Positions 1-9,141 of a stretch of 32,912 nucleotides of DNA are shown here, one piece after another (the stretch's first letter is position 1; every line of letters begins with the position of its first letter). Below the pieces are notes generated by a model. That model saw nothing but the letters and a program-made list of their open reading frames with translations. It made no database searches and was not told where the DNA came from. The position numbers and the translations under genes are program-made. This stretch comes from Lactobacillaceae bacterium (lineage in GTDB: Bacteria > Bacillota > Bacilli > Lactobacillales > Lactobacillaceae): contig JAITPD010000030.1 in NCBI GenBank assembly GCA_031289615.1, positions 1 to 32,912 on the forward strand, read 5' to 3'.

Positions 1-224
1 ACCACCTCCGTTACTAAGTCGCCCAGCTGTATGACACAGCTGCCCAACTAAGTACTGCGGATCGTGTTTTGGTAAGCGATAAATCGCTAACAAAACGCAT
101 AATGAATCGTGCAGGGTAAATTCGAAACGTAAAGAATCTTTAGCGAAGCTGATCAATTAAAGATAATATTCTAATGACCGAAGTGTTGCACCACAAGCAA
201 TACAAGTTATTAATCTAAATCAGT
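1..224 (+). other. Gene-free structured region, possibly the 3' part of an RNA
   Basis: No convincing reading frame is present; frame 1 is open only from the window edge to a stop at 49-51. The sequence is rich in self-complementarity. CAGCTGT (24-30) pairs with ACAGCTG (36-42), and this hairpin is flanked by the direct repeat ACTAAGT (13-19 and 47-53). GTTTTG (66-71) pairs with CAAAAC (91-96) around an inner AGCGAT/ATCGCT stem. The region leads into a strong rightward terminator, so a rightward transcript runs through it. It could be the 3' part of a noncoding RNA or the 3' UTR of a gene to the left. I do not see hallmarks of RNase P RNA, tmRNA, 5S or 23S rRNA. It carries one copy of the 33-base repeat (129-161). 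Confidence 0.45.
129..161 (+). repeat. Copy A of a 33-base inverted dispersed repeat
   Basis: This stretch matches the reverse complement of 14950-14982 at 31 of 33 positions. It holds a 13-base palindrome (TAAAGAATCTTTA, 130-142), the linker GCGAAG, and a TGATCA palindrome (150-155). Weaker similarity extends upstream: GTNCAGG lies 13 bases before the core in both copies. The function is unknown. Confidence 0.8.
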
Positions 225-257
225 AAAGTGTCTTGCTATTAGTGAGACACTTTTTTG
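225..257 (+). terminator. Rho-independent terminator
   Basis: AAAGTGTCT (225-233) pairs perfectly with AGACACTTT (245-253) around an 11-base loop, and a T run follows to 256. On the other strand no T run follows, so it acts on rightward transcription entering from the left of the window. Confidence 0.88.
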
Positions 258-365
258 TTACAGCTTCTTAAGAAAAACTTGTGAGAGATAAGTTATACCA
301 CACTTTTTTGGTGTGACAGTGTAAAATAGAATGGAATAGATAATAAAATTCATAGGAGGTTTGTC

Positions 366-1259
366 ATGGAGCAGACACCGTATTTAAAAACGACCATTTC
401 TGATGACCGTGCAGAGTTTAGCCAGAAATTAGATGCAAAAATGCAATACATCAGTGATGTCCAACAAGCAATTAGTGAAGACAACGACCGAGTATTGTAC
501 AATCTTTTAGATCGCAAAAAATATGCTGAGTTGATTGAAGCAAAACAGGAAGTTAAAGATAACCGGGTCGATGCGCGGATGATCGATGATGTCTTGGAAG
601 AACTTTCACATCATTTGGCAGCTCGTTTGATTGAATACCTTTCAGAAAAGTTTCCGTTCTTTTATTATGAAGAAGATGCCCGCGGAGTTTATCAATTGTA
701 CTTTGGAAATTGGTGGGACCGGCGTCATTTTGGATTGCTCGATCCATTGACGGTTAATTTTATTTTTAATGATGACGAATATCAAATGTTGAGTACCGCA
801 GTTGATCTCGCTGAAGAAGGTCGCCGTTATCATACTGATGTGATTGAGGATACGACGCGTTCGAATGAGGCATTGCAAAGTATCGTTGACCAACAAAGTA
901 GCCGAAATGAAGAGCGGGTGGCTTTGACGGCAGAACTCGAACAAATGGGTGAGAAGCCTGGAATGTTTGAATCACAAGAAGTTAAGAACCGCCGGGAGCA
1001 AGTCAAGACGCGTTTGGCGCAGATTCAATCCGCTGATGAAAAAGCAGCAGAAGTGCCTAAGTTGATTGCTGAAAATAATGCAGTCATTTTGAATTATTCA
1101 AAGGAAGATACCATTTTGATTTATGAGCAACGTGCGATTAATGATCAATTTGGTGATTTTGAGGCGTTTAAAACAGCGGTGAAGGATCTCTACAAAGATT
1201 ATGTTAGCCAATTATCTGAGGTTGACTTAAATGAGAATGGAGGTCGAATCAATGGTTGA
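366..1259 (+). CDS. Coiled-coil protein of unknown function, first gene of a three-gene operon
   Basis: A 297-residue soluble protein with no signal peptide or membrane segment. AGGAGG at 354-359 lies 6 bases before the ATG. Residues 1-60 are helical and charged; a middle part (about 95-140) is rich in aromatic residues (FPFFYYEED, GNWWDRRHFG); residues 150-250 read as long amphipathic helices rich in Glu, Gln, Arg and Lys, likely a coiled coil. Such coiled coils attract loose SbcC or SMC-like annotations, but I see no Walker A, ABC signature or Walker B motif, so it is not an SMC ATPase itself. Its end overlaps the next start by 8 bases, which implies translational coupling. The role is unknown; a structural or scaffold role in a complex with the two downstream proteins is inference only. 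Confidence 0.85.
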   Translation: MEQTPYLKTTISDDRAEFSQKLDAKMQYISDVQQAISEDNDRVLYNLLDRKKYAELIEAKQEVKDNRVDARMIDDVLEELSHHLAARLIEYLSEKFPFFYYEEDARGVYQLYFGNWWDRRHFGLLDPLTVNFIFNDDEYQMLSTAVDLAEEGRRYHTDVIEDTTRSNEALQSIVDQQSSRNEERVALTAELEQMGEKPGMFESQEVKNRREQVKTRLAQIQSADEKAAEVPKLIAENNAVILNYSKEDTILIYEQRAINDQFGDFEAFKTAVKDLYKDYVSQLSEVDLNENGGRING

Positions 1260-2247
1260 TCACATTCAAGGACATGTTAATGGTTATGTTGATTTATTAA
1301 AGGCTGATGTTGAAAAAATTTCAGAACAATTGGGGCAACTGGATCTCTTGTCAAACAGTGCTGATCCAACAATTGTGCACAGTGTTTTGGAGCAACTGGT
1401 CAGTGAAAAATTAACAACTGAATGGGCTGTTGTTCCCCGCCAATACAAGCATACTGACTGGTATTTGTTGGCAATGCATCGCTTTTTGAGTTTTGCTGAT
1501 GCACAAGATTATGACTTGTTGACGCCAACTGATCGTGAAGAATTGACGATGGTTTTCAATTTGCTGCAGGTGCCAGGCGTATTTCAGTTTGTTGAAGATC
1601 AGGAGAACAATGCGGTCTTGTTTGTTGAGATGGGCACGCAAGAAAAGCTGTTCTATTGGTCAGCGCAAAATAAGCAACTTTACTTTAACTCGCATGCTAT
1701 TACGAGCTTGTTGGTTTCGAATTATCGGGCAAAGGACACGGCGGATGATATTCGTTCAGTCGCAGATTTGTTGCGGATTTTTGGACGTTATATGGAAGCG
1801 ACATTTGACTATGATGTGCACTACAATATCTTAGAAACAGCTGATTCGTTCTTGTATGAATTAGTGCAAACTGAGATGCCAGCTGGAATGTTGGACCGTT
1901 TGTTTGTCTTGTCAGCTGAGTCAAATTATTTCTTGCAGACTGTTCAAAATGGAGCTGCAATGATGCTCGAGAACAATGTTGAAGTACGCGTATTTTATGA
2001 TGACAATGCACAAGCTGTTGGTGGGCAAGAGTGGCATTTCCAAGTGATTGATGGAACTGACGCAGTTTCATGGCTGGATGTTTTGCTGGATTACGACTTC
2101 ATTGGAACGTGGTATTTGAAGGAACGCAAAACGATTGAGGTCGCATCAAAGGCACTAATATTTGAAGATGGTCCGCGCAAGCCTCAAGGGCCAGCAGTGA
2201 TTGTCGAAGTGTTGTATCCGCGGGAGACTGAAGCAGATGAGCTTTGA
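1252..2247 (+). CDS. Conserved-looking protein of unknown function, second gene of the operon
   Basis: I chose the ATG at 1252 over an earlier in-frame start at 1231, because GGAGGT (1238-1243) sits 8 bases before it; this gives 331 residues. The protein is acidic and soluble with no export signal. Its first 45 residues form an amphipathic helix (MVDHIQGHVNGYVDLL), and the rest mixes helices with aromatic-rich strands (FYWSAQNKQLYF, YDFIGTWYLKERK). I recognise no domain. It overlaps the upstream gene by 8 bases and the downstream gene by 11 bases, the arrangement expected for subunits of one complex. No catalytic motif is visible. Confidence 0.85.
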   Translation: MVDHIQGHVNGYVDLLKADVEKISEQLGQLDLLSNSADPTIVHSVLEQLVSEKLTTEWAVVPRQYKHTDWYLLAMHRFLSFADAQDYDLLTPTDREELTMVFNLLQVPGVFQFVEDQENNAVLFVEMGTQEKLFYWSAQNKQLYFNSHAITSLLVSNYRAKDTADDIRSVADLLRIFGRYMEATFDYDVHYNILETADSFLYELVQTEMPAGMLDRLFVLSAESNYFLQTVQNGAAMMLENNVEVRVFYDDNAQAVGGQEWHFQVIDGTDAVSWLDVLLDYDFIGTWYLKERKTIEVASKALIFEDGPRKPQGPAVIVEVLYPRETEADEL

Positions 2248-2731
2248 TTTTGCGGATTATCTGCGTGAAGCGCGACAAATGTTCCCGGAGATTGCTGCGG
2301 AATGGGAAATGCCAATCAAGCGCGATGATTTTGTGCTAAACGACTATTTGAATTTAACTGCGACGTTGGGTAGCTTGATGCAAGCGACGAAAGCTTTGAA
2401 TTTAAATATTCCGGCAAACGAGGTTGATTCAGCGCCGGTCGTTGAGATTTATGCGCAAGGTTTGGTCCAATTTTTATTGATTAGCTTGAAGCAACAGTGG
2501 ACGCATTTGATGGTGTTGGAAGATAGTGATCTTGTACAGCTCAAGAAGTTTCCGCAGATGCATTTGAATCATCAGTTTATGGGAATTCAAACGATGTTGC
2601 TAAACAGTTACCATCAAAAGCGTCAGGCTGATTTTTCGCATGCGTGGCGTTCGTATCTGAAGCTGGGGTTGTTTGAGTTGAAACTGGGTGAAGATGAGAT
2701 TGATGTAGCGGTGAGGAAAATTGTTGGTTAA
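2237..2731 (+). CDS. Degenerate dimeric-dUTPase-like all-alpha protein, third gene of the operon
   Basis: The ATG at 2237 gives 164 residues and overlaps the preceding stop (2245-2247). GGGAG at about 2221-2225 serves as ribosome site. The protein is all helical. Three stretches resemble the dimeric dUTPase (MazG-related) fold: LTATLGSLMQA, where the family has an ELGELANE-type metal motif; VVEIYAQGLVQFLLISL, where the family has EEYxDGLHFxLS; and a C-terminal YLKLGLFELKLGEDEIDVA, like the family's final helices. The metal-binding acids of the first motif are Thr and Ser here, and the Asp of the second is Gln, so it is probably not an active dUTPase. It may have become a binding or structural subunit. 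A strong terminator follows directly. The family link rests on pattern only. Confidence 0.8.
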   Translation: MSFDFADYLREARQMFPEIAAEWEMPIKRDDFVLNDYLNLTATLGSLMQATKALNLNIPANEVDSAPVVEIYAQGLVQFLLISLKQQWTHLMVLEDSDLVQLKKFPQMHLNHQFMGIQTMLLNSYHQKRQADFSHAWRSYLKLGLFELKLGEDEIDVAVRKIVG

Positions 2732-2739
2732 AATAAGGG

Positions 2740-2770
2740 AGATCAGGCCAATTGTGGCTTGATCTTTTTT
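2740..2770 (+). terminator. Rho-independent terminator of the three-gene operon
   Basis: An 11-pair stem (AGATCAGGCCA / TGGCTTGATCT, one G-T wobble) with the 4-base loop ATTG is followed by six T. Its T run reaches the stop codon of the convergent EamA gene. Confidence 0.92.
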
Positions 2771-3680
2771 AATTTCCCAAATCAACCGGCGAAATCTTCT
2801 TGCTATGCATCGTTTGAATAAACACCGTGCTCACAATCAGGGTGGCACCTAGCGCGTCGATCCAGCCAAATGCAATGTGGAAGAGCAAGACGCTAAAGAT
2901 AGTTCCAATCAGCGGCTCAACTGCACCAAGCGTGCTGGCGACGGTCGGCGAGATGTAGCTTAGACTTTGGATGAATACCAAATAGGCGATTGCCGTTCCA
3001 AAGATAATTGAAAAACTTAAGATGCTGATAATCGGCCAATTGAAAGTTGGGGCGTTTTTCCAAGCCGGATTCACAAAATTTATCGCAATCCCAGCGATGA
3101 GCATGGCCCACCCCGAAACGGTAATTGCACCGAATTTTTTAACCAGTTTTCCTGGAAGCAACGTATAAAACACAGCGCCGACAGCAGCCATGAGCCCCCA
3201 AAACAACGCCAGCTTAGACATTGCTAGTGCACCGATTTGCCCATGCGTCGCGATGAGAAAAGTTCCTGCTACGGCCAATATAATCGCAATAACATCTTGA
3301 CGCCGTGGTAAACGCCATTTCATAACAGCGAGCACGATGACAATCATGATTGGATTAGTGAATTGCAAAACCGTTGCCGTGGCAGCGTTTCCAGCGTGGA
3401 TGGCCATGATATAAGTGTATTGAACAAAGAACATCCCTAGCAACGAAAAAATCAGGAGCCGGCCAATTTCTTTGATTGATTTAAATGGTGTGAAAATTGC
3501 TTTACCATTTTGGGCAAAGGCAATTCCTAAAATAATGATTCCAGCTGTGATTAAACGAAATGTCGCAAACCATTGTGAGTCAACATTGTATTTAAATAGT
3601 AAGTCGACGGCGATACTGTTGAGACCCCAAAAAGCGGGCCCAGTAATTGCTAGCAACAGTCCTTTAGTTCGATTTGACAT
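2769..3680 (-). CDS. EamA/DMT-family transporter
   Basis: A 303-residue integral membrane protein with about ten hydrophobic segments and the internal duplication typical of EamA (drug/metabolite) exporters. The first helix begins LLLAITGPAFWGLNSIAVDL, the usual AxxWG pattern of the family. The second repeat contains FWGLMAAVGAVFYTLLPGKL and TLGAVEPLIGTIFSVLLF, the conserved AxxEPl motif. It starts at an ATG with GGGGGA upstream and stands alone on the minus strand, convergent with the preceding operon. The substrate cannot be told from sequence; amino acids or metabolites are typical for the family. Confidence 0.92.
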   Translation of the reverse strand: MSNRTKGLLLAITGPAFWGLNSIAVDLLFKYNVDSQWFATFRLITAGIIILGIAFAQNGKAIFTPFKSIKEIGRLLIFSLLGMFFVQYTYIMAIHAGNAATATVLQFTNPIMIVIVLAVMKWRLPRRQDVIAIILAVAGTFLIATHGQIGALAMSKLALFWGLMAAVGAVFYTLLPGKLVKKFGAITVSGWAMLIAGIAINFVNPAWKNAPTFNWPIISILSFSIIFGTAIAYLVFIQSLSYISPTVASTLGAVEPLIGTIFSVLLFHIAFGWIDALGATLIVSTVFIQTMHSKKISPVDLGN

Positions 3681-7584: not shown

Positions 7585-9141
7585 ATGCGTAATAAGCGAA
7601 TGAAGCAAGCAGGAATTGTTTTGGTCACAACATTGGCCCTGGGAACTGGAACGAGCAAGTTGTTTGCGAACTCTACTACAGATGGTCAAGCACAAAATGG
7701 AAATCAGATTCAATTGTCAGTGCGACCTGAAACAATGTTTTGTTCAGACTCATCAATTAAGCACAGCGATGAAGCAGTTGTAAATGTTCCCAACACGGCA
7801 TTGACTAATAACGAATATCCAAAAGCGAATGTCTACGATCAAAAGTTGGCCCAAGTTGGAGCAGTTTTGAGTCAATCTGCATATTCTAAGAGCGCGACAG
7901 ATGACATTGCTCCTGGCTACACGAATAAAGACCTCAAGATTTTAGGATATAGTGATATTCAATTGTACGATTTTGATTTAAAGACGAACGAACAAAAAGT
8001 TGATTCGGAAAGTAATATTGCTTTTACAATCGCTCACAAGACTACAGAAATTGATGGACACAAGGCAAATGCATTTGCGATTATTTTACGCGGGACGCCA
8101 ACCAGTAAGGAATGGAAGGGTAATTTCCGCTATAAGGACGGATTCGGCGACAAATACGCTCAATTCTGGGAGAACAACATTTATTCATTGAGCAAGAAAG
8201 TCCATGCAACGTTTGAAGAATATTGCCAAGCGCATGAAGAAGATATTGCACCACAAGTGACAAACAAGATCTTTATCACTGGACATAGCCGTGGTGGTGG
8301 GACTTCAGAATGTTTGGGCTACATGCTGGACAAAGATTCTCAAAACAACACTGGCTTGATGGCTGCGCATAGTGCCATCAACGCAAATAACACAGCGATT
8401 AACAAGGAAAACGTGCTGGTTTATGCTTTGGCACCAACGCAAGCTTTCCGGCCAGAAGGGGATGATACGTCAGCAGAAACTGAAATCAATGCAAATCAAG
8501 ATGGAGCATATAATAATATTCAAGTCATTGTAAATCCGCTTGACTTCGTGCCAACTAATCCTACGAACCAATGGGGTTACCAACACGTGGGAACTGTTCA
8601 CAAGTTGTTTGACGCAGACAAGATTACATCAGCTCAATATGAAGAAGGTTTGATCGGTTTGCAAAAGGTTGCGAAGTTGAGGGATGGAAAGACATTGTTC
8701 ACACCACAAGCCATTGAAAATATGATTGGTAAGAACAAGGAGTTCAAGACGATTGCCGACCGAAAGGCTCACGACAAAGATGGCATCTTGCAATTACGTG
8801 AAGCATTGGATCAAATTTGCCCTAACTTGAGCACTTATGATACTCCACAAACTTTCCAAATCAGTGATGGTAGCGCAGTTAAGACATACAGCTTCTCATT
8901 ACACGAATTCTTTAATTCATATGTTGTTTCATTTTATGGCGGGAAAGCCTTTGACAATGAGACATTCCATGATGTTGTTGGCTATTTGATGAACCCAAGC
9001 ATCAAGCAAACTGATCCAGTCGCATTAGCATATCAAAAGTTGTTGGCACACCTTCCAACGTCACCAGATGGACCAAACATTGGACAACATTTGTGCACGA
9101 CATATATGGGATGGTTGTTTAGCACAAAGACGGTTGATTAA
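7585..9141 (+). CDS. Secreted lipase (class 3-like alpha/beta hydrolase)
   Basis: A 518-residue exported protein. The signal peptide has RNKRMK, a hydrophobic core and a cleavage near LFANS (about residue 28). The nucleophile elbow GHSRGG has Ser235; an ILRGT strand near residue 170 fits the oxyanion-hole region. NPLDFVP near 317-323 probably carries the catalytic Asp, and a His in the C-terminal half (FHDVVGY, about residue 461) is a candidate for the third triad member. No LPxTG anchor or membrane helix follows, so it is likely released. It is longer than minimal class 3 lipases and resembles large secreted lipase-family proteins of lactobacilli. AGGATGG lies about 10 bases before the ATG. 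Carbon-source control is suggested by the upstream cre-like sites. The actual substrate is not known. Confidence 0.88.
   Translation: MRNKRMKQAGIVLVTTLALGTGTSKLFANSTTDGQAQNGNQIQLSVRPETMFCSDSSIKHSDEAVVNVPNTALTNNEYPKANVYDQKLAQVGAVLSQSAYSKSATDDIAPGYTNKDLKILGYSDIQLYDFDLKTNEQKVDSESNIAFTIAHKTTEIDGHKANAFAIILRGTPTSKEWKGNFRYKDGFGDKYAQFWENNIYSLSKKVHATFEEYCQAHEEDIAPQVTNKIFITGHSRGGGTSECLGYMLDKDSQNNTGLMAAHSAINANNTAINKENVLVYALAPTQAFRPEGDDTSAETEINANQDGAYNNIQVIVNPLDFVPTNPTNQWGYQHVGTVHKLFDADKITSAQYEEGLIGLQKVAKLRDGKTLFTPQAIENMIGKNKEFKTIADRKAHDKDGILQLREALDQICPNLSTYDTPQTFQISDGSAVKTYSFSLHEFFNSYVVSFYGGKAFDNETFHDVVGYLMNPSIKQTDPVALAYQKLLAHLPTSPDGPNIGQHLCTTYMGWLFSTKTVD

What the first reader, a model, noticed from the sequence alone, without database searches (positions are those of the whole stretch)
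366..2731. Tightly coupled three-gene operon of unknown function with a coiled-coil protein and a dead dUTPase-like subunit
All three genes overlap their neighbours or nearly so (8 and 11 bases) and share one ribosome-site style and one terminator, as expected for a stoichiometric complex. The first protein is a long coiled coil without ATPase motifs; the second has no recognised domain; the third looks like a dimeric dUTPase whose metal-binding acids became Thr, Ser and Gln. A coiled-coil scaffold with a repurposed nucleotide-binding fold could be a cell-envelope, chromosome or defence system not yet described.
Basis: partly seen in the sequence, partly recalled or inferred. Interest (0 to 1): 0.7.

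Follow-up and report, generated by a model that had tools for sequence, protein, structure and literature searches.

The report
Unnamed operon with dead dUTPase
A conserved trio of lactic-acid-bacterium genes pairs two proteins that none of the family libraries searched here names with a former nucleotide-cleaning enzyme (dUTPase) that has lost its active site, and related lineages appear to have lost it repeatedly while keeping the gene, which points to a second, unknown job.

Summary
In detail: three overlapping genes (366-1259, 1252-2247, 2237-2731; overlaps 8 and 11 bases), each behind a Shine-Dalgarno-like site, closed by a strong terminator. P1 and P2 reach no curated Pfam or NCBIfam cut-off. 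P3 descends from dimeric dUTPase (PF08761): relatives in the same operon keep the metal-site quartet E,E,E,D and motif V; the window has T43, S46, I71, Q74 and a shortened C-terminus. On a P1+P2 tree, intact versus lost active sites need 8 changes (bootstrap 5-95% range 8-8), so catalysis was probably lost about eight times while the gene stayed. Another dUTPase family is present in 220 of 221 genomes.

The 'one three-part complex' idea is weakened. P1-P2 is the inseparable unit (71 of 71 Enterococcaceae carriers have both, adjacent). P3 is missing beside P1-P2 in several genera and in the Enterococcaceae loci read, and survives alone, without the quartet, in 16 genomes. Best reading: a P1-P2 cytosolic adaptor pair, with P3 a dUTPase turned non-enzymatic partner. 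The cellular role is unknown; no defence link was found.

The parts
225..253 (+). terminator-like hairpin that may close the preceding transcript
   Evidence: consensus scan only; 4 such sites found in 1-3000 against 2.3 expected
354..359 (+). Shine-Dalgarno-like AGGAGG of P1
   Evidence: sequence
366..1259 (+). P1, 297 aa: conserved N-terminal part (about 1-138, with FPFFYYEE and FGNWWDRR) and coiled-coil part (about 139-262)
   Evidence: relatives
1239..1243 (+). Shine-Dalgarno-like GGAGG of P2
   Evidence: sequence
1252..2247 (+). P2, 331 aa: orphan protein found next to P1 in the loci read
   Evidence: low-confidence AlphaFold2 model
2222..2226 (+). Shine-Dalgarno-like GGGAG of P3
   Evidence: sequence
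2237..2731 (+). P3, 164 aa: derivative of dimeric dUTPase without the active site
2363..2374 (+). P3 T43 and S46, at the first two metal-binding Glu positions of dimeric dUTPases
2447..2458 (+). P3 I71 and Q74, at the third (Glu) and fourth (Asp) metal-binding positions
2498..2500 (+). P3 W88, first residue of the P3-specific conserved block
2639..2668 (+). P3 H135-A136-W137 ... K142 ... G144, rest of the P3-specific conserved block
2734..2771 (+). intrinsic terminator of the operon, facing the convergent EamA gene

Best explanation
P1 and P2 form an obligate soluble two-protein complex: P1 gives an N-terminal conserved part and a coiled-coil arm, P2 a second partner; neither shows a recognised enzyme domain, so together they act as an adaptor or scaffold. 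In an ancestor of part of the Lactobacillaceae a dimeric dUTPase (P3) joined the transcription unit and gained a new conserved block (W88, H135, W137, K142). Since a second dUTPase family covers the housekeeping job, hydrolysis became dispensable and was lost about eight times, leaving P3 as a non-enzymatic dimeric partner or regulator, as in the window. Shown: gene order, ancestry of P3, loss of its active site, recurrence of that difference on the tree, P1-P2 linkage. Inferred: physical complexes, the adaptor role, that P3 binds P1-P2 where they occur together, and that the changes were losses. Unknown: the target and phenotype.
For: P3 ancestry: PF08761 matches 11 of 37 aligned P3 members at E<=1 (best 2.9e-23) and 55 of 221 Lactobacillaceae genomes, 54 at E<=4e-18 and one at 1.3e-5, all 55 at P3 places (coordinates compared); canonical Bacilli dUTPases share active site and motif V with intact P3s. 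Loss: window T,S,I,Q; of 63 operons with P3, 18 have E,E,E,D and 45 do not, one of the 45 keeping two of four and the rest one or none. Recurrence: 8 changes, bootstrap 5-95% range 8-8, 0 of 500 shuffles as low. Retained constraint: W88 in 18 of 18 intact and 44 of 45 lost, K142 in 17 of 18 and 44 of 45, H135 in 18 of 18 and 43 of 45, while the commonest residues of 20 canonical dUTPases there differ. Redundancy: PF00692 in 220 of 221 genomes, own genome included. P1-P2: of 98 Enterococcaceae 71 have P1 and the same 71 have P2, adjacent in 71 of 71; 67 of 67 Lactobacillaceae loci of the tree, which were chosen for P1, have P2. 102 genomes of 17 genera have P1 and P3, and no genome of these genera was listed with only one of the two.
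Against: P3 lives without detectable P1 in 16 genomes of two genera, with W88, W137 and K142 still in 16 of 16 (H90 and H135 relax), so this block cannot be only a P1-P2 interface. P1-P2 live without P3: 0 of 19 Enterococcaceae loci read and 0 of 12 Lactobacillaceae loci chosen for lacking it have a P3 nearby. No structure of a complex was computed; the P2 model is poor (pLDDT 63) and P1 could not be folded. In genus g29 P1 is short (frames of 230-246 aa) and lacks much of the coiled coil, so the arm is not essential everywhere. Parsimony cannot tell gain from loss. dS was saturated for 8 of 12 pairs of dead P3s.
Confidence: 0.55

Rival explanations
1. P3 has nothing to do with P1-P2 physically; it is an independent moonlighting protein that only shares a promoter in a packed core-genome region.
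For: P3 persists without detectable P1 in g23 and g26, in the five loci read in full between glnA, miaA or pyr genes and the rplU region; P1-P2 persist without it.
Against: 102 genomes of 17 genera have both and none of these genera was listed with only one; the order P1-P2-P3 holds also where the operon sits at another chromosomal place (g19: L071, L076). H90 and H135 relax where P1-P2 are gone.
Confidence: 0.3
2. dUTP/dUDP-sensing module: P3 binds or cleaves the nucleotide and signals through P1-P2, like phage dUTPases that act as regulators; in dead lineages the input was rewired.
For: 18 of 63 P3s keep the full quartet, and the 11 of them checked keep motif V, although PF00692 dUTPases are present; regulatory use of dimeric dUTPases is known (passages of PMC5608427).
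Against: 45 of 63 operonic and 16 of 16 solo P3s lack the site; no recognised repressor or signalling domain in P1 or P2.
Confidence: 0.1
3. Anti-phage or other defence system.
For: Two IMG/VR contigs with phage-like genes carry P1; an unnamed coiled-coil protein beside a nucleotide-pocket protein would fit.
Against: PADLOC best E 0.017 for the window proteins, on the coil; no phage match; core neighbourhood in many genera; 28 of 28 same-genus genomes have P1.
Confidence: 0.04
4. P3 is decaying, on the way to a pseudogene.
For: Active site and motif V lost; a few P3 frames hold stops inside the matched stretch.
Against: Mostly open frames, low dN/dS in the 4 of 12 dead pairs where it could be estimated (0.07-0.14), and a block kept in nearly all dead P3s.
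Confidence: 0.03

Closest known systems
Dimeric dUTPase family, Pfam PF08761 dUTPase_2 (cellular Bacilli enzymes, loci L137-L156)
   Same: Intact P3 relatives keep VELxExAN...WFKxWK, EEYVDA and the C-terminal N..RQ...Y end; the window P3 aligns with them over most of its length.
   Different: Window P3 lacks all four metal ligands and motif V and has no Pfam match itself; it carries W88/H135/W137/K142 instead.
Staphylococcus aureus phage dimeric dUTPases that derepress SaPIbov1 (PMC5608427; passages read; solved chains 5myd, 5mil)
   Same: A dimeric dUTPase used for a protein contact besides catalysis.
   Different: Those are active enzymes of phages with a variable motif VI; P3 is a bacterial gene with a lost active site and no known partner. 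The sequence match of an intact P3 relative to them is weak (E 0.33 and 0.51).
SbcC / SMC-type coiled-coil ATPases (label 'exonuclease SbcC' on the L. fermentum P1)
   Same: Coiled coil; weak coil-only match of an enterococcal P1 to SMC_prok_B (E 1.5e-4, 19.7 bits against a cut-off of 567).
   Different: P1 is 297 aa and has no ATPase domain match; the label looks spurious.

Membership tests
dUTPase_2 (PF08761) | profile match above the gathering score | tested here: not met
   window P3: 0 families at E<=10; met by relatives in 55 of 221 genomes
dUTPase_2 (PF08761) | four acidic metal ligands E,E,E,D | tested here: not met
   T43, S46, I71, Q74
dUTPase_2 (PF08761) | motif V at the C-terminus (K, N, R contacts to the nucleotide, as described in PMC5608427) | tested here: not met
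   window P3 ends before it
dUTPase_2 (PF08761) | common descent through intermediates | tested here: met
   one alignable family A3 at the same operon place, part of it above the PF08761 cut-off
dUTPase_2 (PF08761) | dUTP/dUDP hydrolysis | not testable with these tools
   needs an assay
SbcC/SMC ATPases | ATP-binding head domain | tested here: not met
   no such match for P1 in Pfam or NCBIfam; 297 aa
known anti-phage defence systems (PADLOC-DB 2.0.0) | match to a system protein | tested here: not met
   best E 0.017 for the three window proteins
RWD-like or other known fold for P2 | clear structural match | tested here: inconclusive

The most novel reading that the evidence does not exclude
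P1-P2 is an undescribed two-protein cellular machine of Lactobacillaceae and Enterococcaceae, and P3 is a dUTPase that was captured as its dimeric subunit and then turned into a non-enzyme in about eight lineages in parallel: a natural series of enzyme-to-structural-subunit conversions inside one operon.
Probability: 0.35. Interest if true: 0.75.

Novelty: new variant of a known kind. Interest (0 to 1): 0.5.

Why it matters
P1 and P2 are widespread genes of a heavily used group of bacteria (P1 in 138 of 221 Lactobacillaceae genomes) and have no family in the libraries searched. P3 offers intact and dead versions of one enzyme in the same operon, so one can ask what a metabolic enzyme does after it stops being one, with about eight replicates. 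It also warns that a 'dUTPase' label, such as the L. fermentum one (its quartet is E,K,Q,K), may be wrong as to activity.

Tried and rejected

Literature: (listings and starts of abstracts only) showed no paper on these genes; the locus tags searched were guessed from memory. Of the papers listed I opened only PMC5608427 (passages). The library lacks most subscription papers.

Full report
1. The observation. The window is contig C57 of a 2.0 Mb genome; its nearest named relative found is Weissella kandleri (P1 69% identical). Three genes overlap as described: P1 366-1259, P2 1252-2247, P3 2237-2731, with Shine-Dalgarno-like sites before each, a terminator-like hairpin upstream at 225-253 and a strong terminator at 2734-2771 (-21.7 kcal/mol, z -6.3). 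None of the three has a clearly transmembrane-like stretch by a simple hydropathy scan (highest 19-residue mean 1.51, in P3). P1 has a conserved N-terminal part and a stretch of about 139-262 with a 3.5-residue hydrophobic period in its first half; the second half is less clear.

2. Families. P1 and P2 of the window reach no curated cut-off in Pfam or NCBIfam; their aligned relatives gave only scattered weak Pfam matches (best E 0.0011 among 43 and 0.0017 among 45). PHROGs (window proteins), PADLOC and, by profile, the PDB gave nothing convincing. P3 alone has none either, and its profile finds no dUTPase in the PDB, but 11 of 37 members of its family match dUTPase_2 at E<=1, best 2.9e-23.

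3. Distribution. P1 is in 28 of 28 same-genus genomes and in 138 of 221 Lactobacillaceae genomes, 24 of 40 genera, by profile (188 of 301 with the single protein). P3 is in 118 of 221, 19 of 40 genera. Comparing the two genome lists: 102 genomes of 17 genera have both, 36 genomes of 7 genera have P1 only, 16 genomes of 2 genera have P3 only. P2 was not searched across the family; it was seen beside P1 in the loci read (67 of 67; in L123 a 345-aa frame stands there that the profile does not recognise). Across the order, P1 was found in 17 of 198 genomes: 13 Lactobacillaceae and 4 of family f3. Those four hold a P1-P2 pair whose profiles match ours (hhalign: P1 probability 98.1, E 1.3e-13; P2 94.6, E 7e-8, single comparisons). 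In 98 genomes of f3, P1 is in 71 and P2 in the same 71, adjacent in all 71 (read off the coordinates). In 230 genomes of the class only one further f3 genome and noise were seen. Phage records have no P1; the one plasmid hit is a 760 kb L. fermentum record with core genes.

4. Context. In many Lactobacillaceae loci read the order is miaA-glnR-glnA-P1-P2-P3-...-rplU-rpmA-...-efp-nusB, with other places in some genera (gene names by recall from the translations, partly backed by the annotated L. fermentum region). There the labels are 'exonuclease SbcC', 'hypothetical protein' and 'dUTPase'. In f3 the pair sits elsewhere, in some genomes behind a DUF1002 protein.

5. The dUTPase question. Intact P3s align with canonical Bacilli dUTPase_2 proteins over the active site and C-terminal motif V; against the solved phage enzymes an intact P3 relative aligns only weakly but with the acids in register (E 0.33 and 0.51). 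The quartet is E,E,E,D in intact P3s; the window has T43, S46, I71, Q74. All 11 intact rows of the first set keep the C-terminal N..R of motif V, and the dead ones lack it or end before it (the regular expression in that script caught only 2 of the 11, the statement rests on the printed ends and on the column counts). In the larger set of 67 loci, 63 have P3: 18 intact, 45 not; one of the 45 keeps two of four residues, the others one or none. I left out of this set short loci cut before P3 and the P3-less paralog L041; four loci without P3 were in the tree. An earlier, smaller tree gave 6 changes. The P1+P2 tree of the larger set needs 8 changes between intact and lost, with a bootstrap 5-95% range of 8 to 8 and 0 of 500 shuffles as low. 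Because the intact form matches the canonical enzyme, about eight losses is the natural reading, but parsimony alone does not give direction. A different dUTPase family (PF00692) is in 220 of 221 genomes, one copy in the window's genome; many of these matches cover only profile positions 30-129.

6. What P3 keeps. W88, H135, W137, K142 and G144 are nearly invariant in intact and dead P3s: W88 18/18 and 44/45, H135 18/18 and 43/45, W137 17/18 and 42/45, K142 17/18 and 44/45, G144 17/18 and 45/45. In 20 canonical dUTPases G144 is commonly shared (16 of 20); W137 is W in 2 of 20, and for the others the commonest residues listed are different (only the five commonest were printed). Of 12 pairs of dead P3s, 4 gave an estimable dN/dS, 0.07-0.14; in the other 8 dS was saturated. 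Some P3 matches hold stops inside. On the whole dead P3s are under constraint.

7. Evidence against a simple three-part complex. In g23 and g26 P3 stands without detectable P1, in 16 of 16 without the quartet, and W88, W137 and K142 are still in 16 of 16, while H135 falls to 8 of 16 and H90 to 1 of 16. P1-P2 without P3: 0 of 19 Enterococcaceae loci and 0 of 12 Lactobacillaceae loci chosen for lacking it have a P3 nearby. In g29 P1 frames are 230-246 aa and lack much of the coil, and in one genome P1 is split in two frames next to an intact P2 (L129).

9. Verdict. What it works like: most likely an adaptor pair (P1-P2) with a dUTPase-derived non-enzymatic partner in part of the range. Membership: P3 descends from dUTPase_2 but fails its defining residues, so it is a likely pseudoenzyme of that family, not a dUTPase; no assay backs this. 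P1 and P2 belong to no family I could find. The shown steps are homology, order, the difference in active sites and its recurrence; complex formation and function are inferred.

Noticed in passing
L091 (CP033372.1 417685-434479): A 760 kb Limosilactobacillus fermentum record filed as a plasmid carries glnA, rplU, rpmG, nusB and other core genes, so it may be a piece of chromosome; its P3 is labelled dUTPase but has the quartet E,K,Q,K.
   Followed up: partly
L089 and L090 (IMG/VR contigs): Two contigs filed as viral carry P1 next to phage-like genes (in L090 P1-P2-P3 is followed by a phage integrase gene, PF00589), so prophages may insert beside this operon in some lactobacilli.
   Followed up: partly
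L041, L042, L130 (Weissella genomes G005, G006): A second, 37%-identical P1-P2 copy without P3 beside an ABC transporter and what look like menaquinone genes; a second P1 match is also listed for G008 and G011.
   Followed up: partly
L125, L128 (genus g29): P1 is shortened to 230-234 aa by loss of much of the coiled coil while P2 is kept.
   Followed up: no
L107, L108, L180, L185, L187 (Enterococcaceae): A secreted-looking protein precedes P1-P2 in several genomes; Pfam was run on one of them, the copy in L112 (same genome as L108): DUF1002, PF06207, E 7e-51.
   Followed up: partly
window 7585-9141: 518-aa secreted-looking protein with a class 3 lipase domain (PF01764, E 5e-6).
   Followed up: no
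L050, L051 (Weissella): P2 is 459 and 437 aa, over 100 residues longer than in the window.
   Followed up: no
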